Origin: Propionibacterium cyclohexanicum
GTDB taxonomy: Bacteria > Actinomycetota > Actinomycetes > Propionibacteriales > Propionibacteriaceae
Assembly: GCF_900111365.1 (NCBI RefSeq)
Contig: NZ_FOGZ01000002.1
Location: forward strand, 1-64,000
Direction of reading: 5' to 3'
DNA: 64,000 nt
Position numbers and translations under genes: made by a program. Below are positions 43,907-59,978 of the stretch, in pieces; the stretch's first letter is position 1, and every line of letters starts with the position of its first letter. The notes beneath the pieces are model-generated. The model made no database searches. It saw only the letters and a program-made list of their open reading frames with translations, and had not been told where the DNA came from.

Positions 43907-44968
43907 TCAGTGCTGGCGGTGCGCCAGGGCCGCCAGGTCGATGCCCCGCAGCCGGGCCAGCTCGGCGGTCCGCCCGGTGACCAGGAGATCGACCTTCGAC
44001 AACTCGGCCAGGCTGGCGCAGCCCATGAGCGCCATGATCGAGCTCAGCTGCTCGGCCCAGCGCGCGAGCTCGGCGATGAGCGCCTCCTCGCCCTCGTCGA
44101 GCAGGGTATGGAGGAAGTGCCCCGACACCCCCACCGCGCGGGCCCCCAGCGCCAGCGCCCGGACCACGTCGAGTGGATGACGCACGCCGCCCGAGGCGAG
44201 GATCTCGAGCGGAACGGCTGGAGGCAGGTGCAGGCTCTCGAGCAGGCAGAAGGCGCTCGACTGGCCCCAGCCGGCGAGATAGCCGTATTCGGATCGCCGA
44301 CGGCGGTGGTTCTCGATGTCGATGAAGTTCGTGCCGCCGGCCCCGCTCACATCGGCTGCTCTGACGCCTCTGCGGGCCAGCTCCTCGATGCTGCGCCGGC
44401 TCAGCCCGAAGCCCACCTCCTTGGCGAGCACCGGCACCGGCACTGCGCCGGCGATCGCCTCGATGCGCTGTGCCCAGTCGCTGAACTGTCGATCGCCCTC
44501 GGGCATGACGATCTCCTGAGCGGGATTGATGTGCACCTGAAGGGCATCGGCGTCGAGCATCTGCACGGCCCGGCGAGCTTGCTCGGGACTGACGGTCGGG
44601 CCGACATTGGCGAAGACGAAGGCATCGGGCGCCTCGCGGCGCACCACCCGGAAACTGTCCTCGAGGCTGGCATCGCGCAGCGCGATGTGCTGCGAGCCGG
44701 TGGCGATGGCCACCCCGGCAGCCCGGGCGGCCCGGCCCAGCCCGGCGTTGATTCGAGCGGTGCGCTGCGAGCCGCCAGTCATCGCGTTGATGTAGAAGGG
44801 CAGTGGCCATCGCGCACCGAGCACGCTCGTGGAGAGGTCGACCCGGGCCACATCGATCGCGGCCAGGCTGTGGTGGATGAAGCCGATGTCGTCGAAGCCG
44901 TTGGGCCGGCTCTCGTCGCGCAGCTTCTGCGCGAGTGCGACGTGCTGGTCCTTCCGCTCGGTGCTCAT
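43907..44968 (-). CDS. fni: Isopentenyl-diphosphate delta-isomerase, type 2
   Basis: This is 353 residues with ATG at 44968 overlapping the kinase stop (ATGA). RKDQHVALA and FINAMTGGS-like YINAMTGGSQRTARINA start the FMN barrel. VHINPAQEIVMPEGDRQF, VPVLAKEVGFGLSRRSIEEL and DVSGAGGTNFIDIENHR bind FMN and substrate, and SGGVRHPLDVVRALALGA closes it. It interconverts IPP and DMAPP using reduced FMN. It is the last gene of the mevalonate operon. Confidence 0.95.
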   Translation of the reverse strand: MSTERKDQHVALAQKLRDESRPNGFDDIGFIHHSLAAIDVARVDLSTSVLGARWPLPFYINAMTGGSQRTARINAGLGRAARAAGVAIATGSQHIALRDASLEDSFRVVRREAPDAFVFANVGPTVSPEQARRAVQMLDADALQVHINPAQEIVMPEGDRQFSDWAQRIEAIAGAVPVPVLAKEVGFGLSRRSIEELARRGVRAADVSGAGGTNFIDIENHRRRRSEYGYLAGWGQSSAFCLLESLHLPPAVPLEILASGGVRHPLDVVRALALGARAVGVSGHFLHTLLDEGEEALIAELARWAEQLSSIMALMGCASLAELSKVDLLVTGRTAELARLRGIDLAALAHRQH

Positions 44969-46059
44969 CGGGGCATCCGCATCGGCTGATGCACCGACAG
45001 GCCCAGAGCCGTGATCCCGGCCCCCGCCCAGCGCTCGGTGATCCTGGCGGCATCGGTGCCCGTGTCGCACAGCACGATGCCGCAGTCTCCCCCGCCCGCC
45101 CCGGAGCTCTTCGCCGCCGCACCGGCCGACTCGGCGATCTCGACGAGCCGACGCAGCTTGGGGGTCTCGATGACAATCCCGGTGTGCTCGCTCAGCGCAT
45201 TGAGCAGCTCCCGGTTGCGGCTGAGCTGGACGAGGATCGTCGCCGCATCGCCCTCGTCGAACGCGGCAATGAGGGTGGCCACGCACTGGGCGCTGCGGGC
45301 GAGGAAGTCCTCGTAGTGCACCCCTCGGATGCCCTTGCGGGCCTGCACATCGCCCACCAGGCGCGAGGTGGAGGCCGGCGTGCCCGTCCAGCCGACGAGC
45401 AGCCGCAGCCCGCCGGGCGGGGTGAGCTCGCGCACCGACAGGCCCGGCCACGAGCGGGCGATCAACTCGGCGACGGGGACGTCGAAGCGCTGGGTCCGCA
45501 GCCACGAGCGGTCGAAGGAGGTATAGGCGATCCAACCACCGAAGAAGCTGGCGGCGATGTCCCCGCCAGAGCCGGAGCGCTGCACATCGTCGCTGGCCAT
45601 GAGGGCCAGCTTGAACATCTCCATCTCGCTCAGCTGCAAGCCGTAGAACTGCGCCATGGCGCGCACCGTGGCCACCGTCACCGCCGCCGAGGAGCCGAGC
45701 CCGAACTTGCGTCCGGACGCGTCGTCGAGCTCGCTGGTGATGTCGAGATCGAACAGCGTGAGCGGAGCACCCAGCGCGCGGGCGGCCTCTTCGACGACCC
45801 GGATCGCCGAGAGCACGAAACTGTAGGGGGTCTCCTCGTACTCGATGACCAGATCGCCGTCGAGTCGATGCCACACCAGAGGAAGGTTCTCGTACTGATC
45901 GGAACGGATGTGCCCGGCGTCGGTGGCGGCGACGACCCGCACCGTGATGTATCGGTCGATGGCAACCAGCACTGCTGGCTGCCCGGGCTCGACCACGGCA
46001 TACTCGCCGGCGATGTAGAGCTTTCCCGGGGCACGGACCTCAGCCACGCTCATCCTCAC
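44965..46059 (-). CDS. mvaK2: Phosphomevalonate kinase
   Basis: This is 364 residues from GTG 46059 (ATG 46053 is an alternative); the start overlaps mvaD by about 20 bases. GHMP-kinase motifs are APGKLYIAGEYAVVEPGQPA, KFGLGSSAAVTVATVRA (the ATP loop PxxxGLGSSAA) and SSGAGGGDCGIVL. The GEYAV opening and the short QRSGSGGDIAASFFGG segment fit phosphomevalonate kinase, and the operon order confirms it. It makes mevalonate 5-diphosphate. Confidence 0.93.
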   Translation of the reverse strand: MRMSVAEVRAPGKLYIAGEYAVVEPGQPAVLVAIDRYITVRVVAATDAGHIRSDQYENLPLVWHRLDGDLVIEYEETPYSFVLSAIRVVEEAARALGAPLTLFDLDITSELDDASGRKFGLGSSAAVTVATVRAMAQFYGLQLSEMEMFKLALMASDDVQRSGSGGDIAASFFGGWIAYTSFDRSWLRTQRFDVPVAELIARSWPGLSVRELTPPGGLRLLVGWTGTPASTSRLVGDVQARKGIRGVHYEDFLARSAQCVATLIAAFDEGDAATILVQLSRNRELLNALSEHTGIVIETPKLRRLVEIAESAGAAAKSSGAGGGDCGIVLCDTGTDAARITERWAGAGITALGLSVHQPMRMPR

Positions 46060-47047
46060 TGATCAGACGCGCGGCAGGGCCGCAGCAGTTCACCGACACG
46101 GGTATGTTCTCCAGTCTCGTTGACAGCCAGGCCGCCGCTTCGGTGGCCAGTTCGGCGCTGGTGACGACTTTCACATTCGGGCCGGCGTCCATTGTGGCCC
46201 ATACCGGCAGCCCGGCGTCCCGGGCCCGGTGCACCGCGTCCAGGACGCGCACGGTGTCGGGTTCCCAGTACACGATCGCCGGGCGGGCCGAGATCATGGT
46301 GGCGTGCATGCCCAGGGCATTGCCCTCGAAGATCGTCCCCGCGGCCCCCAGATCGCCGGCACGCAGGGCACTCAGCGCGTCCTCGAGATCGACTGCGCTG
46401 CGCTGCACCCATGCCTCGTAGAGCGGGGAGCTCGCCACGGTGCGGCGCATGGCCTCCCGACTCGAGATCGCCTTGCGCCCGGCGTTCACCTGGGCGACGA
46501 GCACCGCCAGCGGAATCGGACAGTCCAGTGGCTCGGCGAACGAGCTCAGATCGTCGTGACCGGCCCGCCACACCACCAGACCTCCGAAGATCGAGCGGCA
46601 GGCTGACCCCGAACCCCGCCTGGCGAGTCGAGACAGCTCGCGGCTGGACAGCTCCAGGCCCGCGGCGGCCGACGCAGCGAGTGCCAGGGCCGCGAATCCG
46701 GATGCCGAACTCGCCAGCCCGGCGGCGGTCGGTCCGTCGTTGCGTGAGTCGACCTGGGCGTGCTGCTCGATGCCCGCGAGACCGCGGACGATGTCGAGGA
46801 AGCGGCTGACCCGACGAAGTGCTTCCCCGGACTGCTCCTCGCCGTCCAGCGACAGGCTGTCGGACCGGGCCCCGGTGAAGGTGACCGTGGTCGTGGTGGC
46901 CAGCCCGTCCAGGGTCAGGGACAGGCTTGAGGTGCGGGGCAGCACCAGCGTCTCGTCGGCCTTGCCCCAGTACTTGATGAGCGCGATGTTCGCGTGGGCG
47001 ACTGCGGTCGCCCGGCCGGGCCCGAAAGACCTGGACGCCGTGCTCAC
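46040..47047 (-). CDS. mvaD: Diphosphomevalonate decarboxylase
   Basis: This is 335 residues with ATG at 47047 overlapping the mevalonate kinase stop. ATAVAHANIALIKYWGKADE, LPRTSSLSLTLDGLATTTTV, NDGPTAAGLASSASGFAALA and SGSACRSIFGGLVVW are the classic boxes, and AGPNVKVV carries the region of the catalytic Asp (TMDAGPN). It converts mevalonate diphosphate to isopentenyl diphosphate with ATP. Confidence 0.95.
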   Translation of the reverse strand: MSTASRSFGPGRATAVAHANIALIKYWGKADETLVLPRTSSLSLTLDGLATTTTVTFTGARSDSLSLDGEEQSGEALRRVSRFLDIVRGLAGIEQHAQVDSRNDGPTAAGLASSASGFAALALAASAAAGLELSSRELSRLARRGSGSACRSIFGGLVVWRAGHDDLSSFAEPLDCPIPLAVLVAQVNAGRKAISSREAMRRTVASSPLYEAWVQRSAVDLEDALSALRAGDLGAAGTIFEGNALGMHATMISARPAIVYWEPDTVRVLDAVHRARDAGLPVWATMDAGPNVKVVTSAELATEAAAWLSTRLENIPVSVNCCGPAARLISEDERG

Positions 47048-48030
47048 GCCGTCACCTCGACCGGCTGGAGCGGATGGATCCAGGTCGCCACCGCACCCGC
47101 GCCTGTCAGTGCAGAGCGGACCTGCTGGGCGATCCGGGCGGTGGGCGCCAGCGAGATGACACAGCCTCCCAGTCCTCCCCCGGTCAGCTTCGCGCCGAGC
47201 GCCCCGGCCCGGATCGCGGCGTCATTGAGTACGTCGAGTCTCTCGTGGCTGACCCCCAGGCTCGTGAGCAGCTGCTGGGCGTGGTTCATCGCCTCGCCCA
47301 GGGGATGAACATTGCCCTCGGCCACATCGCGCAGGGCCTGCCGGGCGAGTCCTCCCAGGTCCGCCAGGAGCTCGCCCACCGCACCCGGCTCCCGCTCGTA
47401 GCGCTCGCGCACCCCCGTCACGGCAACGCGGGTGCTGCCACGGATCCCTGAATCGGCGACCACCAGGTGGGCATCGAGCTTCATCTGCACGAGTTCCATG
47501 CGCCCCGACTCGAAACGGACCGGCCCCTGTGCCGCGGTGACCGCTGCGTCCAGCCCGGAAGGTTGCCCGTGGGCCACCTGTTCTGCCTGCTGGGTCAGCT
47601 CGAACAGCTCTGCTGGGCTGGCCGATACGCCGAAGGCGCCGAGCACTGCCCGGATCACCGCGCCGGCGGATGCTGCGGACGAGCCCATCCCCCGTTCCGG
47701 CGGGAAATCGCTGACCGTCTCGATATCGAGCCGGGCGTGGGGTTGCCCCACCCTTTCGAGAGCGACGTCGACGGCCCGTCGCAGGCAGGCGAAGCGCCGG
47801 CCCGAGGCGGCGAGCTCGCCGCGATAGTCCAGGCTGCGCAGCATGGGGACACCGGCCGCTGGACGGACCTGGGCGTGCATTCGCAGGCTACGCAGCGGGA
47901 GCGCAAGGGCCGGATGGCCATAGACGACCGAGTGTTCACCGAACAGAATGATCTTGGCCCAGGTGTCCCCGGAACCAGCGTGGGGCGACAATTGCACCGT
48001 CGATGCCTTTCCCGGTGGCCGGCGGCGCAC
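47044..48030 (-). CDS. mvaK1: Mevalonate kinase
   Basis: This is 328 residues from GTG 48030, or 317 from GTG 47997; the latter has GGGAAAGG at a good distance and is likely the true start. WAKIILFGEHSVVYGHPALA, ERGMGSSAASAGAVIRAVLG and GAKLTGGGLGGCVISL are the three GHMP motifs, and the GEHSVVYG form is that of mevalonate kinase. It is the first gene of the four-gene operon; the enzymes making mevalonate (HMG-CoA synthase, reductase) are not in the window. Confidence 0.95.
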   Translation of the reverse strand: MRRRPPGKASTVQLSPHAGSGDTWAKIILFGEHSVVYGHPALALPLRSLRMHAQVRPAAGVPMLRSLDYRGELAASGRRFACLRRAVDVALERVGQPHARLDIETVSDFPPERGMGSSAASAGAVIRAVLGAFGVSASPAELFELTQQAEQVAHGQPSGLDAAVTAAQGPVRFESGRMELVQMKLDAHLVVADSGIRGSTRVAVTGVRERYEREPGAVGELLADLGGLARQALRDVAEGNVHPLGEAMNHAQQLLTSLGVSHERLDVLNDAAIRAGALGAKLTGGGLGGCVISLAPTARIAQQVRSALTGAGAVATWIHPLQPVEVTA

Positions 48031-49452: not shown

Positions 49453-49683
49453 CGGAAACGACGCAGACCAGACGCTCCCGGGCAGCTGACCGAAGGTGAA
49501 CAGTGCGTGAACCGTAATTTCATCTACAAGCGTCGTGCGGACGAAGCGTTCATAACTGGCTAGCCTGCTCCTGACAACACATCCGTCCGCCCCTCCCAGA
49601 ACCGCGGTCTGTGGTCGCCGAACTCCGGCAGTCCCATGGGCCGCCACCCGCTACCGAGTGCCACCCCTCATGAAGGACCAACA

Positions 49684-50715
49684 GTGAAGATCACACAATC
49701 AAGAGTCATCGCGACAGGACTGGCCTTCGCCAGTGCCCTCGCCCTGTGCGCCTGTGGCGTGAGCCAGAACGCCGCCTCGGGCACCAACGGCTCGGCCTCG
49801 GCGTCGGCGAGCGCTGCGGCCTGCGTCGGCACGAGCGATCCCGCGGCCGCCGCGCCCACCAAGCTGACCCTCGCTCTCGTGCCCTCGGGCGACGCCACCA
49901 AGCTCGTCGAATCGGTCAAGCCGCTGGCATCAGCCCTGAGCAGCAGGCTCGGTATCCCCGTCGAGGGCGTCGTCACCGCCGACTACCAGGCCGCCGTGGA
50001 GGCCATCGGCTCCAATCAGGCTCAGATCGGCATGCTCCCCTCGCTGCAGATGAGCCAGGCCTGCGACAAATACGGCGCCGTTCCCGCTCTCCAGACCTTG
50101 CGGCAGGGAAAGAGCACATATGCCGCCCAGATGTTCACCAACAATCCGGACAAGTACTGCTCCGACACGCCCAAGCCCGGGGCGAACGGCATGCTCTACT
50201 GCAACGGCACCGAGTCGGGCAATGGCCCGGCCGGGCTCGATTCCATCACCAAGGTGAAAGGCGCCAAGGTGGCGATGCTCTCGGCCGCGTCGCCGGCCGG
50301 CTACATCTTCCCGGTGGCAGCCCTCAAGGCGAAGGGCGTCTCCGTCGGCGACGTCACCCCGGTCAAGGTGACCGCCAACGATGCCTCGGTCCTTGCGGTG
50401 TACAAGGGTGATGCCGAGGTGGGCTTCAGCTACTGGGACGCCCGTACGGTCGTCAAGAAGGACAACCCCGACGTAGGAAACAAGGTCGTCGTGTTCGCCC
50501 TGACCGACGAGGTTCCCAATGACGGCATGTCGATCACCGGCAAGATGAGCGCACAGTGGCAGGACAAGGTGAAGAACGCCATGCTCGATTACGCCGGCAC
50601 TCCCGACGGGGTGAAGACGCTCACCGCCATCTACCAGATCACCGGCATGAAGCCAGCCGACGTCGAGGCCCTTGGCCAGACGCAGGCCGCCGCCCGGTCG
50701 ATCGGACTGGGCTGA
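49684..50715 (+). CDS. phnD: Phosphonate-type ABC transporter substrate-binding lipoprotein
   Basis: This is 343 residues from GTG 49684 behind AAGGA. The signal peptide ends in the lipobox LALCAC (Cys at about 23), followed by a Ser/Ala linker. LTLALVPSGDATKLVESVKP, GVVTADYQAAVEAIGSNQAQ IGMLP and SPAGYIFPVAALKAKG are PhnD/PtxB traits. It binds a phosphonate, phosphite or phosphate ester outside the cell. It is first of four transporter genes. Confidence 0.88.
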   Translation: MKITQSRVIATGLAFASALALCACGVSQNAASGTNGSASASASAAACVGTSDPAAAAPTKLTLALVPSGDATKLVESVKPLASALSSRLGIPVEGVVTADYQAAVEAIGSNQAQIGMLPSLQMSQACDKYGAVPALQTLRQGKSTYAAQMFTNNPDKYCSDTPKPGANGMLYCNGTESGNGPAGLDSITKVKGAKVAMLSAASPAGYIFPVAALKAKGVSVGDVTPVKVTANDASVLAVYKGDAEVGFSYWDARTVVKKDNPDVGNKVVVFALTDEVPNDGMSITGKMSAQWQDKVKNAMLDYAGTPDGVKTLTAIYQITGMKPADVEALGQTQAAARSIGLG

Positions 50716-50719
50716 TCCC

Positions 50720-51529
50720 ATGACGCGCACCGGGGCGGACATCCGCATCCGTCATGTCGGGGTCACCTATCCCAACGGCTTCACCGCCTTGCGCGATGTG
50801 AGCCTCGACATTCCGGCCGGCCAGATGGTCGGTATCGTCGGCCTGTCTGGGGCAGGCAAGTCCACCCTGGTGCGCACCATCAATGGGCTCGTACCGATCA
50901 CCAGCGGCACCATCACGCTCGGCGATCACGAGCTGCGCCCCGCCGGCCAGCGCCAGATGGCATCGCGGGAACTGCGCCAGCTGCGTTCCTCGGTGGGAAT
51001 GGTCTTCCAGAGCTTCAACCTCGTGAAGCGCACCAGCGTCCTCAACAATGTGATGATGGGCCGGCTGTACCACAATCCGGCCTGGCGAGTCCTGCTTGCC
51101 GCGTGGTCAAAGGACGATGTCGAACTGGCCATGCAGGCCCTGGAGCGCGTCGAGATCGTGTCGAAGGCCTACGAGAAGGCAGCCAGCCTCTCCGGCGGCC
51201 AGCAGCAGCGGGTGGCCATTGCCCGCACCCTCACCCAGCAGCCGCGAGTGATCCTGGCCGACGAACCGGTCGCCTCACTCGATCCCCCCACCTCCCACGT
51301 CGTCATGCGCGATCTGCAGCGCATCTGTTCCGATCTGGGCATCACCGTGCTCGTCAACCTGCATTTCCTCGACCTGGCCAGGCGCTATTGCGAGCGCCTG
51401 GTGGGCCTGCGCGCCGGAGAGGTGATCTTCGATGGCCCGGTGGCCGATGCGAGCGAGTCGGTCTTCGAGGAGATCTACGGACGCTCCTTGAGCGCCGAGG
51501 ACGTCCTGGACTCGGGGGTGAGGCTGTGA
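50720..51529 (+). CDS. phnC: Phosphonate-type ABC transporter ATPase
   Basis: This is 269 residues with ATG at 50720. Walker A is [13 protein letters not shown]-loop [20 protein letters not shown], signature [15 protein letters not shown] and Walker [15 protein letters not shown]. The stretch [13 protein letters not shown] after the Q-loop is characteristic of PhnC. Its stop overlaps the next GTG (GTGA). Confidence 0.93.
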
Positions 51530-52335
51530 TCCCCGTCGATGGGAGCGGGCAGCGGCCGACGGCTCGGCCCAGCAGGCCCGACCACAGGCTGCGAACCGGC
51601 ATTGTGATCGTGCTCGTCATGGCCATCACAGTGTGGTCGGCCCGCGGCATCGACGTGGATCCGGCGGCGATCCTCGCCAATTGGCCCAATGCCGTCGGCA
51701 ATCTCGTCCAGCTCTTCCAGCCCGACTACAGCTTCTTCCCCCAGACTCTTCCCGCTCTGGTGGAAACCCTCCAGATGGCCGTCATCGCCACAGCCGTCGG
51801 CTCAGCGCTCTCCCTGCCGCTGGCATTCGGGGCATCGCGCGCCGCGAACCCGAATCTCACCGTGCTACGCGTCGTGCGTTTCGTCATGAACCTGGTGCGC
51901 TCGGTTCCCGACATCCTCTACGCGGCAATCCTGGTGGCCATCGTCGGCGTGGGGGCGCTGGCCGGCATCCTGGCTCTCGTGCTGTTCAATATCGGCATCA
52001 TCGTCAAGCTGGTGTCCGAGGCGCTGGACGGCCAGGACCTCGGCGCTCAGGAGGCTGCGCTGGCTGCCGGAGGCAGCTGGTTCGGGGCCAACAGGATGAG
52101 CCTGCTGCCCCAGATCCTGCCCAGTTTCGCCTCGCAGGTGCTGTACACCTTCGAGCTGAATATCCGGGCCTCGACGGTGATCGGCCTGGTGGGCGCCGGC
52201 GGGCTGGGCCTTCTCATCGACAATGTGCGCAACTACTTCCTCTACCACTATCTCTCGCTCATCATCGTGGAGATCCTGGTGCTCGTCGTCCTGCTCGAGG
52301 GCTTCTCCTCCTGGCTGCGGAAGAAGTTGCTGTGA
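51526..52335 (+). CDS. phnE: Phosphonate-type ABC transporter permease 1
   Basis: This is 269 residues from GTG 51526. PDYSFFPQTLPALVETLQMA is the PhnE start of the membrane domain; SVPDILYAAILVAIVGVGAL and the EAA loop DLGAQEAALAAGGSWFGANR contact PhnC. FELNIRASTVIGLVGAGGLG is the strongest family signature. It pairs with the second PhnE. Confidence 0.92.
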   Translation: MIPVDGSGQRPTARPSRPDHRLRTGIVIVLVMAITVWSARGIDVDPAAILANWPNAVGNLVQLFQPDYSFFPQTLPALVETLQMAVIATAVGSALSLPLAFGASRAANPNLTVLRVVRFVMNLVRSVPDILYAAILVAIVGVGALAGILALVLFNIGIIVKLVSEALDGQDLGAQEAALAAGGSWFGANRMSLLPQILPSFASQVLYTFELNIRASTVIGLVGAGGLGLLIDNVRNYFLYHYLSLIIVEILVLVVLLEGFSSWLRKKLL

Positions 52336-53216
52336 GCGCCACTGCAGGGTCGGTGCGTCCCGTGAGGCCCGCGAACTGGGGCCAGCGGGCAGCCTGGTGG
52401 CTGGTCTCGCTCATCGTGGTGGCGGCATTCTGGTCGGTGCGCATCAAGTGGTCGGCGCTGCTCGACTTCCCCGGTCAGTCCGCGAAGTATCTGCGGGCGC
52501 TGTTCGTGCCGCCGGCCTGGCACAAGGCCGGCGAGGCCTTCTCGTCGATGATTCTGTCGGTTCAGATGGCCTGGTTCGGCACCGTGCTGGGCATCGTCGT
52601 CTCGTTCCCGCTCAGCTTTCTCGCGGCCAGGCCCCTGGCCCCCCTCGGTGTGCGGCTCCCGCTGCGCGGCCTGTTCGCGATCATCCGGGCCGTGCCCGAG
52701 GTGGTCACCGCGATCCTCATCTTGTCGGTGACCGGCCTGACCCCCTTCACCGGGGCCCTGGCGCTGGCCATCGGCTCGATCGGGACGCTCGGCAAATGGG
52801 GATATGAGGCGTTCGAGGCCGCCGAGAGCGGACCGCTGGAGGCCATCCGCACGAGCGGCGGCGGCATGGTTGCCCTGCTGCGCTGGGGCGTGTGGCCCAG
52901 CTCGGCCCCCGAGGTGCTGTCCTTCTGGCTCTACCGCTTCGAGATCAATGTGCGCGCCTCGGCGATCCTGGGACTCATCGGCGCAGGCGGTATCGGCAAG
53001 ATGCTCCAGGACAACGTGCAGTTCCGCAACTGGGATGTCGTGGGCATGCTGCTCCTCGTCGTCATCATCGTGACGATGGCCATCGACCAGATTTCCGGAG
53101 CGGTGCGGGTCCGGCTGGTGAGCGGGAGGTGGGAACTGCCGCTCGTGCGCCGGTTAGCATCGGGCGGTGCGCCACGCCGCAAAGGCCTCTCACCGGAGGC
53201 AACGCCGCCCGGGTGA
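52332..53216 (+). CDS. phnE: Phosphonate-type ABC transporter permease 2
   Basis: This is 294 residues from GTG 52332, overlapping phnE1 by 4 bases. It keeps the family order: MAWFGTVLGIVVSFPLSFLA, FAIIRAVPEVVTAILILSVT, EAFEAAESGPLEAIRTSGGG and RFEINVRASAILGLIGAGGI. The duplicated permease implies a heterodimeric channel. No C-P lyase, phnX or ptxD gene is in the window. Confidence 0.92.
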   Translation: MSATAGSVRPVRPANWGQRAAWWLVSLIVVAAFWSVRIKWSALLDFPGQSAKYLRALFVPPAWHKAGEAFSSMILSVQMAWFGTVLGIVVSFPLSFLAARPLAPLGVRLPLRGLFAIIRAVPEVVTAILILSVTGLTPFTGALALAIGSIGTLGKWGYEAFEAAESGPLEAIRTSGGGMVALLRWGVWPSSAPEVLSFWLYRFEINVRASAILGLIGAGGIGKMLQDNVQFRNWDVVGMLLLVVIIVTMAIDQISGAVRVRLVSGRWELPLVRRLASGGAPRRKGLSPEATPPG

Positions 53217-53402
53217 GCCTGAGCCGGTCGCGCGCTGGCCGGGACGGCGCCTGGGCAGGCGCGCCGCGGTTCCCCGAAGCTGTTCGGAAGGGAATGTTGC
53301 AAGCGCGTTAAAGGTAGATTTCAAGTCGTCAATTCATACTCTGAGTCTGATTCAGTGGGTTCAGCGGTCCTCCCGGATCGCCGAGACCCATCGGAGGATT
53401 CC

Positions 53403-54860
53403 ATGAGTGCTGACACCCAGCTCGCTCCACCGGCTACCGGCCATAGTTCACGCCTCAAGGGCAATCAGCTCGGAACCACCCAGATCGTCTTCCTCGTCAT
53501 GGCGGCCGTGGCGCCGCTCACCGCGATGATCGTCGTCGCATCCATCGGCATGGCGCTCGGCAACGGCGGCGGCATGGTGGCATCGTTCATCGCCGTCATG
53601 CTCGTCATGATCTGCTTCGCAACCGGCTACGGCCAGATGTCCAGCAGCGTCGTGAACGCCGGAGGCTTCTACGCGTATACCGTGCGGGCGCTGGGCAGGC
53701 AGGCGGGCATGGCGTCCGGGCTCATCGCCCTGCTCGGCTACAACGGCTTCGTCATCGGCGCATTCGGCACCACCGGCTTCTACTTCCAGACGATTGTGGC
53801 GTCGCTGACCGGCATCGACATCCACTGGATGATCTGGGCCGTCGTGCTGGGTGTCATTGCCTTCCTCTTCACCCGCCAGGGCATCCAGTTCAGCACCAAG
53901 ATCCTCAGCATCTCGCTCGTGCTCGAGATGGCGATCCTGCTGGTCCTCGATGTCAAGATCCTCGCGACCACGGGATTCACGATCCACGCCTTCGATCCCT
54001 CGGTGATCACGTCCGGCTCGGTCGGGCTCGGCCTGCTCTTCGCGGCCAACGCCTTCGTCGGATTCGAGGCCACCAGCCTGTTCTCGGAGGAGGCACGCGA
54101 CCCCCACCGCACCATCAAGCGGGCCACTTTCGCCGCAATCCTCACCATCGGACTGTTCGCGGCCTTCACCACATGGGCGTTCGTGAGCGCACTCGGGGCA
54201 TCCTCAACGCAGTCGATCGCCGCCGAACACCTGGCGGCCGGTGACCTGGTGTTCACCATTTCCACCCACTATCTCGGCAGCGCCTTCACGACTGTCATGC
54301 AGTTGCTCCTTCTCGTGAGCCTGTTCGCTGCCCTTCTCGCGCTGCACAACTCGGCCACCCGGTATCTGTACGCCCTGGGGCGAGCCAGGGCACTGCCGAG
54401 CTGGCTCAGCCACACCCGCCCGGACAATGGGGCTCCCGTCCATGCATCGGCCACCCAGGTGGTTCTCTCCCTGGCAGTGCTGATGATCTTCGTCGTGGCC
54501 GGTGCCCAGCCCATGACCTCCGTCGTCCCGGCAATGACCGGCTTCGGGACGCTGGCCATCATCGCCCTCCAGCTGATCGCCGCAGTTGCCATCATCGTGT
54601 TCTTCCGGCGCCGCCACGACACCAGGCTGCTCACCACCCTCGTGATCCCCGGAATCGGCACTGTCGGGCTCGCCGTGATCCTCACGCTCGCCATTGCGAA
54701 CTTCGGCGTGATGGCCGGCTCCAACTCCCCTGTCGTGGCGGCACTACCCTGGCTTCTCCCGATCGTGGCCGTTGCCGGCGTGATCTATGCGCTGTTCCTC
54801 AAGGCACGTCGCCCTGCGGTCTACCTGGCCCTCGACGACGACATCGAGGCGCTCGCATGA
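53403..54860 (+). CDS. APC-superfamily amino acid permease
   Basis: This is 485 residues with ATG at 53403 behind GGAGGATTCC. Twelve helices are predicted. LGTTQIVFLVMAAVAPLTAM and the Gly-rich helix 1 are APC traits; NAGGFYAYTVRALGRQAGMA and FVGFEATSLFSEEARDPHRT are typical of the amino acid or ethanolamine/polyamine branch. The stop overlaps the kinase gene (ATGA), so it likely imports the substrate of the operon. An amino alcohol or hydroxy-amino acid is inferred. Confidence 0.88.
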   Translation: MSADTQLAPPATGHSSRLKGNQLGTTQIVFLVMAAVAPLTAMIVVASIGMALGNGGGMVASFIAVMLVMICFATGYGQMSSSVVNAGGFYAYTVRALGRQAGMASGLIALLGYNGFVIGAFGTTGFYFQTIVASLTGIDIHWMIWAVVLGVIAFLFTRQGIQFSTKILSISLVLEMAILLVLDVKILATTGFTIHAFDPSVITSGSVGLGLLFAANAFVGFEATSLFSEEARDPHRTIKRATFAAILTIGLFAAFTTWAFVSALGASSTQSIAAEHLAAGDLVFTISTHYLGSAFTTVMQLLLLVSLFAALLALHNSATRYLYALGRARALPSWLSHTRPDNGAPVHASATQVVLSLAVLMIFVVAGAQPMTSVVPAMTGFGTLAIIALQLIAAVAIIVFFRRRHDTRLLTTLVIPGIGTVGLAVILTLAIANFGVMAGSNSPVVAALPWLLPIVAVAGVIYALFLKARRPAVYLALDDDIEALA

Positions 54861-55927
54861 GCATCGCGACGCAGGCCTCGCAGCTGCCCACCTCCCCCGT
54901 CCGATTCGACATCGAACCCCAGCCCACCATCGCAGCACTCGTCCGAGCCGCCTGCCAGGCCTGGGGCCTGACCGATACGACCGCCGAATTCATCAAATAC
55001 CGGGAGAACTGGGTCTTCAAGCTCACCAGCGGTGGGGACCAGTTCGCACTGCGCATCCACCGCCCCGGCTACCAGAGCAGAGCATCCATCCAGTGCGAGA
55101 TGGCCATGCTCACCGCACTGGGCCGAGAGGGGCTCCCGGTTCCCCGCCCCCGGGCCAATGGCCGCGACGAACTGGTGCTCAGCCTGCGTGGGGATGACTC
55201 CCGCAGCTATCAGCTCGACATCCAGGAATGGATTGCCGACACCAAGCCGCTCGGCGAGGTCACACAGCTCTTCCTGGGCGGTCCGGTTCCCGAGCCCGCC
55301 ACCTTCGAGGCAATTGGGGAACTGGCTGGCCGGACCCACTCGGCGCTGGCTCGGGCCGTCGCCGAGGGCCGAGTCGACGCCACCGCACGCCCGAGCTGGG
55401 ACCGCGACGCCCTGGTGGGCCCCCATCCGCTGTGGGGAGATCCGCGGCGTCTGCTCGACGACGACGCCGACCGGCGGGTTATCGACCGGGCGATGAGGCG
55501 GATCTCGGAGCGACTGGAAGCACTGGGCCAGGGCGAGGAGGACTTCGGACTCATCCACGGCGATCTCACCCCGGAGAATCTGCTGGTCCGCGAGGGCTCG
55601 CTCATCCTCATCGATTTCGACGACGCCGGCACGGGCTGGCATCTGTTCGACCTCGCAACGGCAGTAGTGTTCCTCACGGCGAGGCCGGACTTCGTGCGCT
55701 ACGAGCAGGCCCTTCTGGGGGGCTATGAGAGGGTGCGTCCGCTCTCGCAGCAGGCACTGGCAAGCTGGCCCGACGTGCTGCTGGCACGGGCACTGACCTA
55801 TCTGGGCTGGGCAGCGGATCGCCGCGGTGACGAGGCGGCCGAATTCCTCCATGACCACTTCATGGCCCATGTCGTGCAGCGGGCACGCGACTATCTCTCG
55901 GTCCCCCAGGCTCAGCCGCGCGGCTGA
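54857..55927 (+). CDS. APH-fold small-molecule kinase
   Basis: This is 356 residues with ATG at 54857. ENWVFKLTSGGDQFALRIHR is the N-lobe sheet; LIHGDLTPENLLV (about 232-244) is the Brenner catalytic loop and LILIDFDDAG (about 249-258) the metal-binding Asp. This is the aminoglycoside-phosphotransferase/choline-kinase fold as used by hydroxylysine kinase and homoserine kinase II. With the downstream class III PLP enzyme it suggests phosphorylation of an amino alcohol or hydroxylysine-like substrate. Antibiotic resistance is unlikely given the operon. Confidence 0.82.
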   Translation: MSIATQASQLPTSPVRFDIEPQPTIAALVRAACQAWGLTDTTAEFIKYRENWVFKLTSGGDQFALRIHRPGYQSRASIQCEMAMLTALGREGLPVPRPRANGRDELVLSLRGDDSRSYQLDIQEWIADTKPLGEVTQLFLGGPVPEPATFEAIGELAGRTHSALARAVAEGRVDATARPSWDRDALVGPHPLWGDPRRLLDDDADRRVIDRAMRRISERLEALGQGEEDFGLIHGDLTPENLLVREGSLILIDFDDAGTGWHLFDLATAVVFLTARPDFVRYEQALLGGYERVRPLSQQALASWPDVLLARALTYLGWAADRRGDEAAEFLHDHFMAHVVQRARDYLSVPQAQPRG

Positions 55928-55988
55928 ACCGCCGATGGACCACGACATGGCAGCGACGATCGACGACAGACAAGACGAAGGACATCCC

Positions 55989-57350
55989 ATGACAGCAGTC
56001 GGGTACGCATCCAACGGACAGCCCCGCAAGGTGGAGGCACACAGCCAATTGCTGGGCCGGCGCATCGCCACCCTCGGCCCCTATTCGCCCCTGTTCTACC
56101 GCGAGCCCCTCGAGCTGGTGAGCGGTTCGGGTGTCTGGGTCAGCGACCGGCAGGGCCAGCGCTATCTGGACGCCTACAACAACGTGCCGCACGTCGGGCA
56201 CAGCAATCCGCGTGTCCGTGAGGCCGTTGCGAAGGCGCTGGGAACCATCAACATCAACAGCCGCTATCTCACCGAGCAGCCGATCGCCTACGCCGAGCGC
56301 CTGCTCGCCACCTTCGCACCGCAGCTGGACCGCGTCATGTTCACCAACAGCGGCTCCGAGTCCAACGAGCTGGCGCTGCGCATCGCGCGCCAGCACACCG
56401 CAAGCGACGGCGTGCTCATCTCCGACTTCTCCTATCACGGCAATACGACCTCCCTTGCCCAGATGACCACCGGTCTGCAGGTGGCCGAGCCGCTGGGCGA
56501 TCACGTCCGTCCCATCCGCATCCCCGACGTCCCCCAGGACGCCTCCGCCCAGGAGACTGCCTCGCTGGTGAGCAGCGCGCTCGCCGAGGTCGACCGGGCC
56601 ATCGATCTGCTCACTGCCCGGGGACACCGCCTCTCGGCGGTGCTGCTCGACCCCTCCTTCTCCACCGAGGGCCTGCCCCGGGTCCCGGTGAGCTATCTGC
56701 GCGGCCTCGTCGAGCGCGTGCACAAGGCGGGTGGCCTGTACATCGCCGACGAGGTCCAGTCGGGCTTCGGGCGGCTGGGCTCATGGATGTGGGGCCACCA
56801 GCGCTTCGGTGTCGACCCCGATCTCGTGACACTCGGCAAGCCGATGGGCAATGGCATCCCCATCGGGGCCGTCGTCCTGCCGGACGGGCTGCTGGAAGAA
56901 TTCGGATCGCGTAATCAGTACTTCAACACCTTCGCCACCACTGCGGTTCCCTCATCGGCTGCACAGGCTGTGCTGGACGTCATGGCGGACGAGCAGCTCG
57001 CGGCACGCGCCGAGCAGATCGGACGTGCGCTGCGCGAGGATCTCACCGGCTACGCGCTGACCGATCCATTCGTCTCCGATGTACGCGGACAGGGCCTGTA
57101 CCTCGGCATCGAGTTGACGGTGGCCGGGGAGCCCGCCCCGGCACTGGCCGGGTGGCTCAGCGAGGCCTTGCGGGAACGCGGTGTGCTGGCAAGCCGGATC
57201 GGGCGCCACGACAACGTCATGAAGGTGCGCCCGCCGCTGGTCTTCGGTTCCCAGGATGCCCGCACCCTGGCCTCGGCACTCGAGGACGCCCTCGCCGAGG
57301 CAGCCCAGGGCGAGTGGGCGCGGCATGCCGCGGTCGGGGGGAGGGCCTAG
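55989..57350 (+). CDS. Class III PLP enzyme, probable phospho-lyase
   Basis: This is 453 residues. I choose ATG 55989 behind AAGGA; ATG 55935 lacks a ribosome site. VWVSDRQGQRYLDAYNNVPH VGH, INSRYLTEQPIAYAERLLAT and VMFTNSGSESNELALRIAR match the group that includes ethanolamine-phosphate and phosphohydroxylysine phospho-lyases more than classical aminotransferases. IADEVQSGFGRLG and TLGKPMGNGIPIGAVV place the PLP Lys at about 284. It would release ammonia, phosphate and an aldehyde. An ordinary aminotransferase role remains possible. Confidence 0.82.
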   Translation: MTAVGYASNGQPRKVEAHSQLLGRRIATLGPYSPLFYREPLELVSGSGVWVSDRQGQRYLDAYNNVPHVGHSNPRVREAVAKALGTININSRYLTEQPIAYAERLLATFAPQLDRVMFTNSGSESNELALRIARQHTASDGVLISDFSYHGNTTSLAQMTTGLQVAEPLGDHVRPIRIPDVPQDASAQETASLVSSALAEVDRAIDLLTARGHRLSAVLLDPSFSTEGLPRVPVSYLRGLVERVHKAGGLYIADEVQSGFGRLGSWMWGHQRFGVDPDLVTLGKPMGNGIPIGAVVLPDGLLEEFGSRNQYFNTFATTAVPSSAAQAVLDVMADEQLAARAEQIGRALREDLTGYALTDPFVSDVRGQGLYLGIELTVAGEPAPALAGWLSEALRERGVLASRIGRHDNVMKVRPPLVFGSQDARTLASALEDALAEAAQGEWARHAAVGGRA

Positions 57351-58109
57351 GTGACCACGCTGGGCATCGCGGGCAAGCGCCTGCTCGTCACCGGCGGGGC
57401 CTCCGGCATCGGCCTGGGCGTGGTCCGCCTCGCGCTGGCCGAGAAGGCCCAGGTCGGGGTCATCACCCGCCGCCAGTCCTCCGTCGAGGCCCTGCGCGAT
57501 GCGACGGGACACGATCCGGCATGCGTAGCAGTGCGCGGCGACGTCACGGACCCGACGCAGCTGCGCAACGCGGTCGATGAGCTGGCCCAGCAGATGGGCG
57601 GAGTCGACATCGTCGTCACCTGCGCGGGCGTCGACGGGGTATTCGGCAACAGCGTGGAAGGCGTGAGCCCCGGCGAGTTCCGCGAGGTGCTCGACACCAA
57701 TGTGGTGGGAACCTTCGCGACGGTACAGGCCGCGCTGCCGTACCTCCGCCGCTCGCTGGCGCCCTGCGCGGTGCTCATCGGCTCGGACTCCGGATTCGTG
57801 TCCGCCCCGGGCATGGTGCCCTACATTGCCTCGAAGGGCGCGGTCCGCCAGCTCACCCAGGCCCTCAGTCTCGAGCTGTTCGGCGACATGATCCGGGTCA
57901 ACTCCGTCTGTCCCTCGGTGGTAGACACTCCGATGGCCCGCCGTGATCTCGGGATCGATTCCTTCGACGAGGTGGGCTATCCGGTCCAGACCGTCGACGA
58001 AGTGACCTGGACCGTACTCATGCTCGCCTCACCGCGCTCCCGCGCGGTCAATGGGGTGTCCCTGCTCAGCGATTTCGGATACTCGGGCCGCTCGAGCTTC
58101 CCCGCCTGA
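57351..58109 (+). CDS. Short-chain dehydrogenase/reductase
   Basis: This is 252 residues from GTG 57351, directly after the preceding TAG. LLVTGGASGIGLGVVRLALA is the cofactor loop, CAGVDG the NNAG-like box and YIASK (about 158-162) the catalytic Tyr-Lys, with Ser in GSDSGF. The absence of a basic residue right after the Gly-rich loop but TRRQSS later suits NADP(H) or NAD(H). It may reduce or oxidise the aldehyde made by the upstream enzyme. Confidence 0.88.
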   Translation: MTTLGIAGKRLLVTGGASGIGLGVVRLALAEKAQVGVITRRQSSVEALRDATGHDPACVAVRGDVTDPTQLRNAVDELAQQMGGVDIVVTCAGVDGVFGNSVEGVSPGEFREVLDTNVVGTFATVQAALPYLRRSLAPCAVLIGSDSGFVSAPGMVPYIASKGAVRQLTQALSLELFGDMIRVNSVCPSVVDTPMARRDLGIDSFDEVGYPVQTVDEVTWTVLMLASPRSRAVNGVSLLSDFGYSGRSSFPA

Positions 58110-58126: not shown

Positions 58127-58765
58127 CTAGCGTCCCGCAGTGGCGGTGAGCGCCCCGACGAGCCAGCCGAACGCCTCGAGGGATTCCTCGCCGTCGAGTT
58201 CGCCGCGAGCAATGGCCATCCCCGATTCACGCAACGCACCGACGAGCATGCGAGCGATGGCACGAACCGGAGCCGATGAGTCGAGCTCACCGGCTCGCAC
58301 TGCATTGTCGAGAGAGCCCACGAAGACCTGGAGGGTCGCCTCCGAGCCACCGCCCGTGGCGCCGGAAGCAGCCACGAGCCGGGGGCCGACCAGATTGTAG
58401 AAGGTGCCGACCCGGGGCTGTGCGGAGACTGCGAAGAACTCCCTCGCCCAGGTCATGAGCACCTCGCGCCAGGGGGTGGCCGGGCTGACGAGCGACTGGC
58501 AGCGCTGCGTCAGATCCCGGCCAATGCTCCGGTAGGTCTCGGAGATGATGGCGTCCAGACCGTCGGGGAACCGCGCGTAAACCGTGGCCCGCGCCATGTG
58601 CGCCATCTCGGCGAGCCGGTCGATACTGACCGCCTGGGGACCCGACTCGGCGATGATCTCCAGTGCGGCGCCGATGATGTCCGCCCGGCCCTGCTCCTGC
58701 TGCCGTTCACGCAGCGACAGCGTCTGTTTCGGCACCCGCTCACTCCTCGTATTGCCCAGGTCCAT
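58127..58765 (-). CDS. TetR-family transcriptional regulator
   Basis: This is 212 residues with ATG at 58765. DIIGAALEIIAESGPQAVSI then DRLAEMAHMARATVYARFPD is the HTH. The C-terminal domain TFYNLVGPRLVAASGATGGG, LDNAVRAGELDSSAPVRAIA is of the TetR_C_34-like sort. It converges on the SDR gene and is divergent from the metallophosphoesterase, so either could be its target. Confidence 0.87.
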   Translation of the reverse strand: MDLGNTRSERVPKQTLSLRERQQEQGRADIIGAALEIIAESGPQAVSIDRLAEMAHMARATVYARFPDGLDAIISETYRSIGRDLTQRCQSLVSPATPWREVLMTWAREFFAVSAQPRVGTFYNLVGPRLVAASGATGGGSEATLQVFVGSLDNAVRAGELDSSAPVRAIARMLVGALRESGMAIARGELDGEESLEAFGWLVGALTATAGR

Positions 58766-59018: not shown

Positions 59019-59978
59019 ATGGAAAGCCTGCACATCCTCCAGCTCAGTGACACCCATCTGCGAGGTGAGCGCCTGCCGGGCACTCCTGACCCCGATGCTC
59101 TGTGGCGCCGCGCGCTCGAAGCGCTGGACACCCTAGGCGAACTCGACCTCATCGTCCTGAGCGGCGATCTGTCGGACGACGGCTCGATCGCCTCCTACGG
59201 ACACCTGCGCACCACGATCACCCAGTTCGCGGCGCGCCATGGGGATGCCGCGCTGGTCTGGGTGCCCGGCAACCACGACAGCCGCCCGGGATTCCGGGCA
59301 GTGCTGGGCCCCGGACTCAGCAGGGCAGCGGTAGCGGCCGGCGCCGACGAGCGCCCGGTGTTCAGCGCCCGGACGATCCACGGCTTCCGAATCATCGGCC
59401 TGGACAGCTCCGTCCCCGGACGCAGCCATGGGCTCGTCGATGACGAGCAGCTCGCATGGCTGCGCGATCTCCTGTCGGTGGACTGCGGCGCAGGCAGCGT
59501 TGTCGTTGTCCACCATCCCCCGGTGGCTCCCGTCACACCGCTCCACCAGGGCATCGGGCTCATCAACACCGAGCGCCTGGCGGACGTGCTCGCCGACTCC
59601 GATGTCCGCCTGGTCCTCTCGGGCCATTATCACCACGCACTGATCGACTCGATCCCGGGGCGGGACGGCGCAATCCCGGTCGTCGTGGCACCCGGGATCA
59701 TCAATCACAATCAGGTCCTGGCACCGCGCGGTCACGAGCTCGCCTCGGCGGCCAGCGGAGCCACTCTCGTCGAGTTGACCACCGACCCTGGCAGCTCGGC
59801 GCTCGACCAGCCGTCCGCGGGCCGCGCACTGCCGGCGAGGGTCCGTGTCATCCCCGTGACTCTCAGCCCCGAGCCGCAGCTGTCGCTGCTCGACCCCGAT
59901 GCCGTCTTGGCGCTCGCCGGGCGCATCGACGCCTCCGAGCAGGAGCGGCGAGCCGCGCGTGGCACAGCCAGCCGCTGA
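59019..59978 (+). CDS. CpdA-like metallophosphoesterase
   Basis: This is 319 residues with ATG at 59019 behind GGAAGG. Metal-site motifs are ILQLSDTHL (D-x-H), VLSGDLSDDG, VWVPGNHDSRPGF and VVHH then LSGHYHH. This is the class III nucleotide phosphodiesterase/CpdA arrangement. Cyclic nucleotide, glycerophosphodiester or another phosphoester substrate is possible; presence beside a phosphonate importer and a phospho-lyase operon may point to organophosphate use. Confidence 0.85.
   Translation: MESLHILQLSDTHLRGERLPGTPDPDALWRRALEALDTLGELDLIVLSGDLSDDGSIASYGHLRTTITQFAARHGDAALVWVPGNHDSRPGFRAVLGPGLSRAAVAAGADERPVFSARTIHGFRIIGLDSSVPGRSHGLVDDEQLAWLRDLLSVDCGAGSVVVVHHPPVAPVTPLHQGIGLINTERLADVLADSDVRLVLSGHYHHALIDSIPGRDGAIPVVVAPGIINHNQVLAPRGHELASAASGATLVELTTDPGSSALDQPSAGRALPARVRVIPVTLSPEPQLSLLDPDAVLALAGRIDASEQERRAARGTASR

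What the first reader, a model, noticed from the sequence alone, without database searches (positions are those of the whole stretch)
53403..58109. Permease-kinase-phospho-lyase-SDR operon
Four abutting genes encode an APC permease, an APH-fold kinase, a class III PLP enzyme of the phospho-lyase type, and an SDR. Vertebrates degrade hydroxylysine and phosphoethanolamine by just such a kinase and phospho-lyase. The bacterial operon reads as a complete route: import, phosphorylate, cleave to aldehyde plus ammonia and phosphate, then redox conversion. This pathway has, to my knowledge, rarely been described as one bacterial operon.
Basis: partly seen in the sequence, partly recalled or inferred. 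Interest (0 to 1): 0.65.

Follow-up and report, generated by a model that had tools for sequence, protein, structure and literature searches.

The report
Amino-alcohol kinase and phospho-lyase operon
Four genes that import an amino alcohol, phosphorylate it and split off phosphate and the amine to leave an aldehyde form a cassette that recurs in many soil bacteria, and gene fusions in relatives suggest its fuel is a phenylethanolamine-type amine (such as octopamine or synephrine) rather than hydroxylysine or ethanolamine.

Summary
In detail: 53403-58109 encodes an APC permease, an APH-fold kinase, a class III PLP enzyme and an SDR, packed in one direction. A TetR gene (58127-58765, -) and a palindromic operator at 53338 belong to it; phnDCE upstream does not appear to. 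The PLP enzyme is ~57% identical to A1RDF1 of Paenarthrobacter aurescens (PDB 5g4i/5g4j, phospholyase), so the kinase/phospho-lyase reading holds. The cassette is not rare or new: A1RDF1's own plasmid locus carries all four homologues plus TetR and ALDH, at least nine other fetched loci carry the four, and three genomes fuse kinase to lyase. It is not the related aminoacetone/aminopropanol microcompartment (RMM), which was tested and separates cleanly. The substrate is what I would change. In the lyase's own clade three genomes fuse it to a phenylacetaldehyde dehydrogenase (StyD, above NCBIfam cut-off), and relatives lie beside PaaK, PaaZ, StyD or amine oxidases. The window's genome already holds ethanolamine ammonia-lyase. 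Best reading: aryl-ethanolamine -> O-phosphate -> arylacetaldehyde + amine + phosphate. The SDR probably acts on the alcohol/ketone. Substrate is inferred, not shown; this genome lacks PaaK and a StyD-level dehydrogenase.

The parts
53338..53346 (.). Candidate TetR operator ACTCTGAGT (core of the overlapping palindromes TCATACTCTGAGTCTGA and CTGAGTCTGATTCAG, 53334-53355)
   Evidence: ACTCNGAGT occurs once in the 64 kb window, 57 bp before the permease start, and also in the intergenic regions beside TetR and kinase of homologous clusters L016, L021, L062 (4 observed, 0.015 expected in 1.77 kb; pattern chosen after looking)
53403..54860 (+). APC-family permease, import of the amine (inferred)
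   Evidence: PF13520; weak full-length similarity to ethanolamine permease model, far below cut-off (61.8 vs 381.75 bits); homologues at 46-59% identity in related clusters
54857..55927 (+). APH-fold small-molecule kinase, amino alcohol O-kinase (inferred)
   Evidence: PF01636; fused to the lyase in L008, L018, L028; in a kinase clade of 32 rows congruent with the lyase clade (SH-aLRT 100); only 28-30% identical to RMM aminopropanol kinases
55989..57350 (+). PLP-dependent phospho-lyase of the class III aminotransferase fold
   Evidence: phmmer 5g4i (A1RDF1 phospholyase) E 1.7e-152, human ETNPPL 6tor E 4e-80, then racemases/aminotransferases at E 1e-47 and weaker; A1RDF1 homologue on pTC2 about 57% identical
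57351..58109 (+). Short-chain dehydrogenase/reductase; probably acts on the alcohol/aminoketone side of the pathway (inferred)
   Evidence: PF00106; conserved at 45-55% identity in related clusters, often beside a separate ALDH; top solved SDR match only E 6e-30
58127..58765 (-). TetR-family regulator, convergent with the operon
   Evidence: PF00440; 34-42% identical to TetR genes adjacent to the kinase in L016, L020, L021, L062, three of which share the operator motif (L016, L021, L062)

Best explanation
A TetR-controlled catabolic operon that works by phosphorylation and then elimination. The permease imports a 2-amino-1-alcohol, the APH-fold kinase uses ATP to phosphorylate its hydroxyl, and the PLP enzyme removes phosphate and the amine to leave an aldehyde. 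The substrate is most likely an aryl-ethanolamine (phenylethanolamine, octopamine or synephrine type), so the products are an arylacetaldehyde, ammonia or methylamine, and phosphate. The SDR most likely interconverts the alcohol and the aminoketone, which would let the other enantiomer or the ketone enter. In this organism the gain is probably nitrogen: the aldehyde would be oxidised by a general ALDH or reduced, because no phenylacetate pathway was found. Shown by sequence: gene identities, kinase-lyase coupling, membership of the phospholyase clade, shared operator. Inferred: catalytic activities, substrate, order of steps. Probability that it is a kinase/phospho-lyase amino-alcohol pathway: about 0.9; that the substrate is an aryl-ethanolamine: about 0.5.
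For: Phospholyase: 5g4i E 1.7e-152, ETNPPL E 4e-80; the lyase lies in a 34-row actinobacterial clade (SH-aLRT 99) with A1RDF1, ETNPPL outside. Coupling: kinase-lyase fusions L008, L018, L028; kinase and lyase trees agree. Aldehyde product: lyase-ALDH fusions L019, L025, L027. Aryl substrate: the ALDH domains of those three fusions pass the StyD phenylacetaldehyde dehydrogenase cut-off (874.5, 876, 882 vs 800); Paraburkholderia L035, L047, L048, L052 have StyD-passing ALDHs nearby; L130 has PaaZ, PaaK and StyD, all above cut-off, with kinase, permease and lyase; L041/L042, the sister pair of window+L005 (SH-aLRT 97), have all four genes plus PaaK and PaaZ. PaaK lies near the lyase in 6 independent lineages of the 80-locus scan, against about 0.28 loci expected (rough Poisson P about 5e-7). 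Copper amine oxidases, which make the same aldehydes, lie near 7 loci. A1RDF1's locus adjoins homoprotocatechuate genes and an annotated phenylacetaldehyde dehydrogenase; L109 adjoins paaABCDE, L108 hpc genes. The own genome has full-length EutB, making a second ethanolamine route redundant. SDR coexists with ALDH in L014, L016, L020, L041, L042, L104.
Against: A1RDF1 was, as I recall Cuetos et al. 2016 (not held), assayed on O-phosphoethanolamine, so the clade accepts small substrates. The window's genome has no PaaK and none of its three full-length ALDHs reaches the StyD cut-off, so the aromatic fate seen in relatives is missing here. The window's own neighbours carry no aromatic gene. Substrate may have shifted along the long window branch (kinase end branch 0.87). 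L027 and L130 use a different kinase subclade. ALDHs of several clade loci (L014, L020, L041, L104) reach only about half the StyD cut-off and could serve other aldehydes.
Confidence: 0.55

Rival explanations
1. 1-amino-2-propanol/aminoacetone catabolism without a microcompartment: SDR reduces aminoacetone to aminopropanol, kinase phosphorylates it, lyase gives propionaldehyde, which suits a propionibacterial metabolism.
For: Same gene kinds as the published RMM/aminoacetone cluster (permease, phosphotransferase, SDR, aminotransferase-fold enzyme; PMC4207490, PMC8007038). Closest solved kinase is 6ef6 (E 1e-22), which I recall to be the M. smegmatis aminopropanol kinase. Explains the conserved SDR.
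Against: In five mycobacterial genomes the true RMM kinase (70-78% to 6ef6) coexists with window-type lyase clusters elsewhere; the RMM kinase, SDR and PLP enzyme are only 25-32% identical to the window's, whereas the lyases of the separate clusters are about 50% identical. No BMC shell gene in the own genome. Phenylacetaldehyde dehydrogenase fusions are unexplained.
Confidence: 0.17
2. Ethanolamine catabolism by ethanolamine kinase and O-phosphoethanolamine phospho-lyase, giving acetaldehyde, ammonia and phosphate.
For: Closest characterised homologue A1RDF1 is reported active on O-phosphoethanolamine (from memory of the paper on 5g4i/5g4j); human ETNPPL is the next solved match. An ExaC-like ALDH that could take acetaldehyde is in the genome (607 bits, below the 900 cut-off).
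Against: Genome already has ethanolamine ammonia-lyase EutB (658 bits). Permease and kinase are far from ethanolamine permease and choline/ethanolamine kinase models. Relatives' context points to aryl aldehydes.
Confidence: 0.13
3. Hydroxylysine catabolism, as in vertebrates (HYKK and PHYKPL).
For: Same enzyme classes in the same order of reactions; APC permease could import an amino acid.
Against: No lysine or aminoadipate gene was noticed among the neighbour families examined in related loci, though these were not searched exhaustively; StyD fusions argue for an arylacetaldehyde, not aminoadipate semialdehyde. PHYKPL itself could not be compared.
Confidence: 0.04
4. The PLP enzyme is an ordinary class III transaminase and the kinase modifies something unrelated (for example an antibiotic).
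For: Pfam and most public annotation call it an aminotransferase; the kinase is APH-fold.
Against: Best matches are phospholyases, far ahead of any transaminase; kinase-lyase fusions; kinase hits no aminoglycoside-resistance model near cut-off (27.8 vs 205 bits).
Confidence: 0.04

Closest known systems
A1RDF1 / AAur_pTC20101 locus of Paenarthrobacter aurescens TC1 plasmid pTC2 (PDB 5g4i, 5g4j phospholyase)
   Same: SDR 52%, permease 58%, kinase 42%, lyase 57% identical, plus TetR
   Different: There split into divergent units with TetR and an ALDH, next to homoprotocatechuate genes; in the window one unidirectional operon without ALDH
Vertebrate HYKK/PHYKPL and ETNPPL (AGXT2L1)
   Same: Kinase followed by PLP ammoniophospholyase; ETNPPL is the second solved match
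   Different: ETNPPL lies outside the bacterial clade; no fused or linked aromatic aldehyde dehydrogenase there
RMM/AAUM aminoacetone utilisation microcompartment (Mycobacterium, Rhodococcus)
   Same: Permease, APH kinase, SDR and class III PLP enzyme in one cluster
   Different: Proteins only 25-33% identical, shell genes present there and absent here; both systems coexist in the same genomes
PbfA, (R)-1-hydroxy-2-aminoethylphosphonate ammonia-lyase
   Same: Class III fold lyase that removes ammonia (PMC8154272)
   Different: Window enzyme scores 169 against a cut-off of 525 bits; the PhnDCE genes upstream are a neighbour only
Octopamine and synephrine dehydratases (EC 4.2.1.87, 4.2.1.88; from memory)
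   Same: Same net conversion, aryl-ethanolamine to arylacetaldehyde plus amine
   Different: Described as single ATP-independent activities; genes unknown to me; no paper on them was held

Membership tests
Bacterial PLP phospho-lyase (A1RDF1/ETNPPL type) | Sequence closer to phospholyases than to class III transaminases | tested here: met
   E 1.7e-152 and 4e-80 for the two phospholyases; next match 1.5e-47; clade support 99
Bacterial PLP phospho-lyase (A1RDF1/ETNPPL type) | PLP-binding lysine conserved | tested here: met
   TLGKPMGNG aligned with TMGKPMGNG of 5g4i
Bacterial PLP phospho-lyase (A1RDF1/ETNPPL type) | Releases phosphate and amine from an amino alcohol phosphate | not testable with these tools
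   Needs an enzyme assay
Kinase/phospho-lyase amino alcohol cassette (pTC2 type) | Permease, kinase, lyase and SDR homologues together | tested here: met
   All four in L104 and in L014, L016, L017, L018, L020, L026, L036, L041, L042
Kinase/phospho-lyase amino alcohol cassette (pTC2 type) | Linked aldehyde dehydrogenase (frequent, not universal) | tested here: not met
   No ALDH in the window operon; three full-length ALDHs elsewhere in the genome
Aryl-ethanolamine catabolism | Lyase clade members physically joined to a phenylacetaldehyde dehydrogenase | tested here: met
   L019, L025, L027 fusions above StyD cut-off
Aryl-ethanolamine catabolism | Arylacetate pathway in the same genome | tested here: not met
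   PaaK absent, no StyD-level ALDH; homoprotocatechuate route not tested
RMM/AAUM aminoacetone microcompartment | BMC shell proteins | tested here: not met
   No PF00936 match in the own genome
RMM/AAUM aminoacetone microcompartment | Aminopropanol kinase orthologue | tested here: not met
   28-30% identity to RMM kinases; those are 70-78% to 6ef6
PbfA | NCBIfam NF049939 cut-off 525 | tested here: not met
   168.9 bits
Vertebrate-type hydroxylysine pathway | Activity on 5-hydroxylysine and its phosphate | not testable with these tools
   Needs assay; PHYKPL not among the solved structures matched

The most novel reading that the evidence does not exclude
The clade is the genetic basis of bacterial breakdown of octopamine/synephrine-type amines: a kinase plus phospho-lyase pair, sometimes with the lyase fused to the kinase or to phenylacetaldehyde dehydrogenase, carries out the conversion long attributed to 'octopamine/synephrine dehydratases', and this window is a stand-alone nitrogen-scavenging version of it.
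Probability: 0.35. Interest if true: 0.65.

Novelty: new member of a known kind. Interest (0 to 1): 0.45.

Why it matters
It moves a widespread family, mostly annotated as aminotransferase plus aminoglycoside phosphotransferase, to a concrete and testable pathway. If the aryl-ethanolamine reading holds, it gives genes for bacterial removal of octopamine, synephrine and related drugs, and natural fusion enzymes for making or oxidising arylacetaldehydes. It also corrects a likely misreading of these clusters as ethanolamine or hydroxylysine degradation.

Tried and rejected
PhnDCE upstream as part of the unit (organophosphate import): no PhnD, PhnE or metallophosphoesterase homologue near the lyase in the 41 loci compared, and the operator lies between phnE and the permease. 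RMM membership: rejected. PbfA/phosphonate degradation: below cut-off. Anti-phage role: no PADLOC match. Sigma-70 promoter and terminator scans were uninformative. Literature searches for kinase/phospho-lyase breakdown of phenylephrine, synephrine or octopamine found nothing in the open library; I have a vague, unverified memory of work on an Arthrobacter strain (TS-15) in this area, so prior description cannot be ruled out. No structure prediction was run, since 5g4i at ~57% identity is a better template.

Full report
What is there. The four genes are as described. The permease and kinase overlap by four bases, the lyase follows after 61 bases, and the SDR abuts the lyase. A TetR gene (58127-58765, minus strand) ends 17 bases beyond the SDR. 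A 9-bp palindromic core, ACTCTGAGT at 53338, occurs once in the window, 57 bp before the permease. The same ACTCNGAGT core lies in the intergenic regions of homologous clusters whose TetR proteins are 34-42% identical to the window's (L016, L021, L062, TetR identities). The pattern was chosen after inspection, so the P value (2e-9) overstates the case, but the position is comparable in each. This marks the operon start downstream of phnDCE.

What the PLP enzyme is. Against all solved structures the best match is the phospholyase A1RDF1 of P. aurescens (5g4i/5g4j, E 1.7e-152), then human ethanolamine-phosphate phospho-lyase (6tor, 4e-80); everything else is at 1.5e-47 or weaker. In a tree of 111 rows the window lyase lies in a 34-row actinobacterial clade (SH-aLRT 99) that includes A1RDF1; the human enzyme is outside. 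The tree was a quick search with some long branches, so fine placement is unsure.

The cassette recurs. 517 candidate relatives were found in the genome collection and 80 loci fetched. The kinase lies close to the lyase in most of them. Homologues of all four window genes (permease 46-59%, kinase 35-42%, lyase 49-57%, SDR 45-55%) occur together in L014, L016, L017, L018, L020, L026, L036, L041, L042 and in A1RDF1's own locus L104, in different orders. Kinase-lyase fusions exist in L008, L018 and L028. Kinase and lyase trees show matching clades (32 and 34 rows). So the functional link is strong. The three same-genus genomes sampled show only matches at the level of general aminotransferases, which points to horizontal acquisition.

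Substrate. Three clade members (Streptomyces humidus L019, Geodermatophilus tzadiensis L025, S. torulosus L027) fuse the lyase to an aldehyde dehydrogenase, and in all three the ALDH domain passes the NCBIfam cut-off for phenylacetaldehyde dehydrogenase StyD. Four Paraburkholderia loci have a StyD-passing ALDH near the lyase. A further mycobacterial locus, L130, has PaaZ, PaaK and StyD above cut-off on one side of a TetR, kinase, oxidase, permease, dehydrogenase and lyase set. L041 and L042, the nearest supported relatives of window plus L005 in the lyase tree, carry all four cassette genes plus PaaK and PaaZ. L031 carries PaaK just below cut-off and PaaZ. Copper amine oxidases lie near seven loci, and N-methyl amino acid oxidase-like enzymes near L025, L027 and, by sequence appearance, L130. 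PaaK near the lyase in six independent lineages of this scan, against about 0.28 loci expected by chance, gives P about 5e-7 under a crude Poisson model; that model ignores clustering of catabolic genes in general. Together these say that the product of this clade is often an arylacetaldehyde, hence the substrate an aryl-ethanolamine.

Caveats for the window itself. Its genome lacks PaaK, and its three full-length ALDHs do not reach the StyD cut-off; the best is ExaC-like. No aromatic gene was seen beside the operon. On the other hand the genome has a full EutB, so ethanolamine already has a route. I therefore put the aryl-ethanolamine reading at about 0.5 for the window and higher for the clade as a whole, with nitrogen supply as the likely gain.

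The SDR. In L014, L016, L020, L041, L042 and L104 it sits beside a separate ALDH, and in S. humidus it accompanies the lyase-StyD fusion. An aldehyde-handling role is then unneeded, and conversion between alcohol and aminoketone is more likely. In the aminoacetone microcompartment an analogous SDR acts on 1-amino-2-propanol (PMC4207490). This is inference.

The RMM rival was tested directly. Five mycobacterial genomes contain both a true aminopropanol-kinase-type gene (70-78% to 6ef6) and window-type or intermediate kinases (27-47% to 6ef6) at other loci. In the two RMM loci read out, the PLP enzyme, SDR and kinase are 25-32% identical to the window's, and small proteins that look like BMC shell subunits lie between them. 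The window's genome has no BMC shell gene. It works like that pathway but is not a member. The identity of 6ef6 as the M. smegmatis aminopropanol kinase is from memory; the file calls it an aminoglycoside phosphotransferase.

Verdict. The operon is a new member of a known kind whose most interesting aspect, the phenylacetaldehyde link, lies in its relatives.

Noticed in passing
window 49636-53216: phnDCE1E2 transporter; PhnC and both PhnE pass NCBIfam cut-offs, the binding protein passes only the broad phosphate/phosphite/phosphonate model. No phosphonate catabolic gene seen beside it.
   Followed up: partly
window 59019-59978: Calcineurin-like phosphoesterase, weakly like CpdA/SpdA, divergent from the TetR gene; not linked to the lyase elsewhere.
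   Followed up: partly
window 43907-48030: By sequence appearance a mevalonate-pathway block (kinases, diphosphomevalonate decarboxylase-like, type 2 IPP isomerase-like) on the minus strand; not checked with models.
   Followed up: no
L019:3022-4677 and 16 other loci: A YtcJ-like amidohydrolase (by appearance) recurs near the lyase clusters; perhaps it frees the amine from an N-acyl form.
   Followed up: no
L107 (E. coli plasmid) and L110 (Pseudomonas plasmid beside VIM-2 integron): SDR, kinase and lyase sets also travel on plasmids of enterobacteria and pseudomonads, one near a class 1 integron.
   Followed up: no
L129:8789-11200: A third, divergent kinase/lyase pair in Mycolicibacterium (lyase 333 bits, kinase closer to 6ef6), neither RMM nor window type, without aromatic neighbours seen.
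   Followed up: no
L005:7806-9359: Bifidobacterium tibiigranuli encodes the window lyase's closest relative (57-59%) with no kinase homologue found within 8 kb.
   Followed up: no
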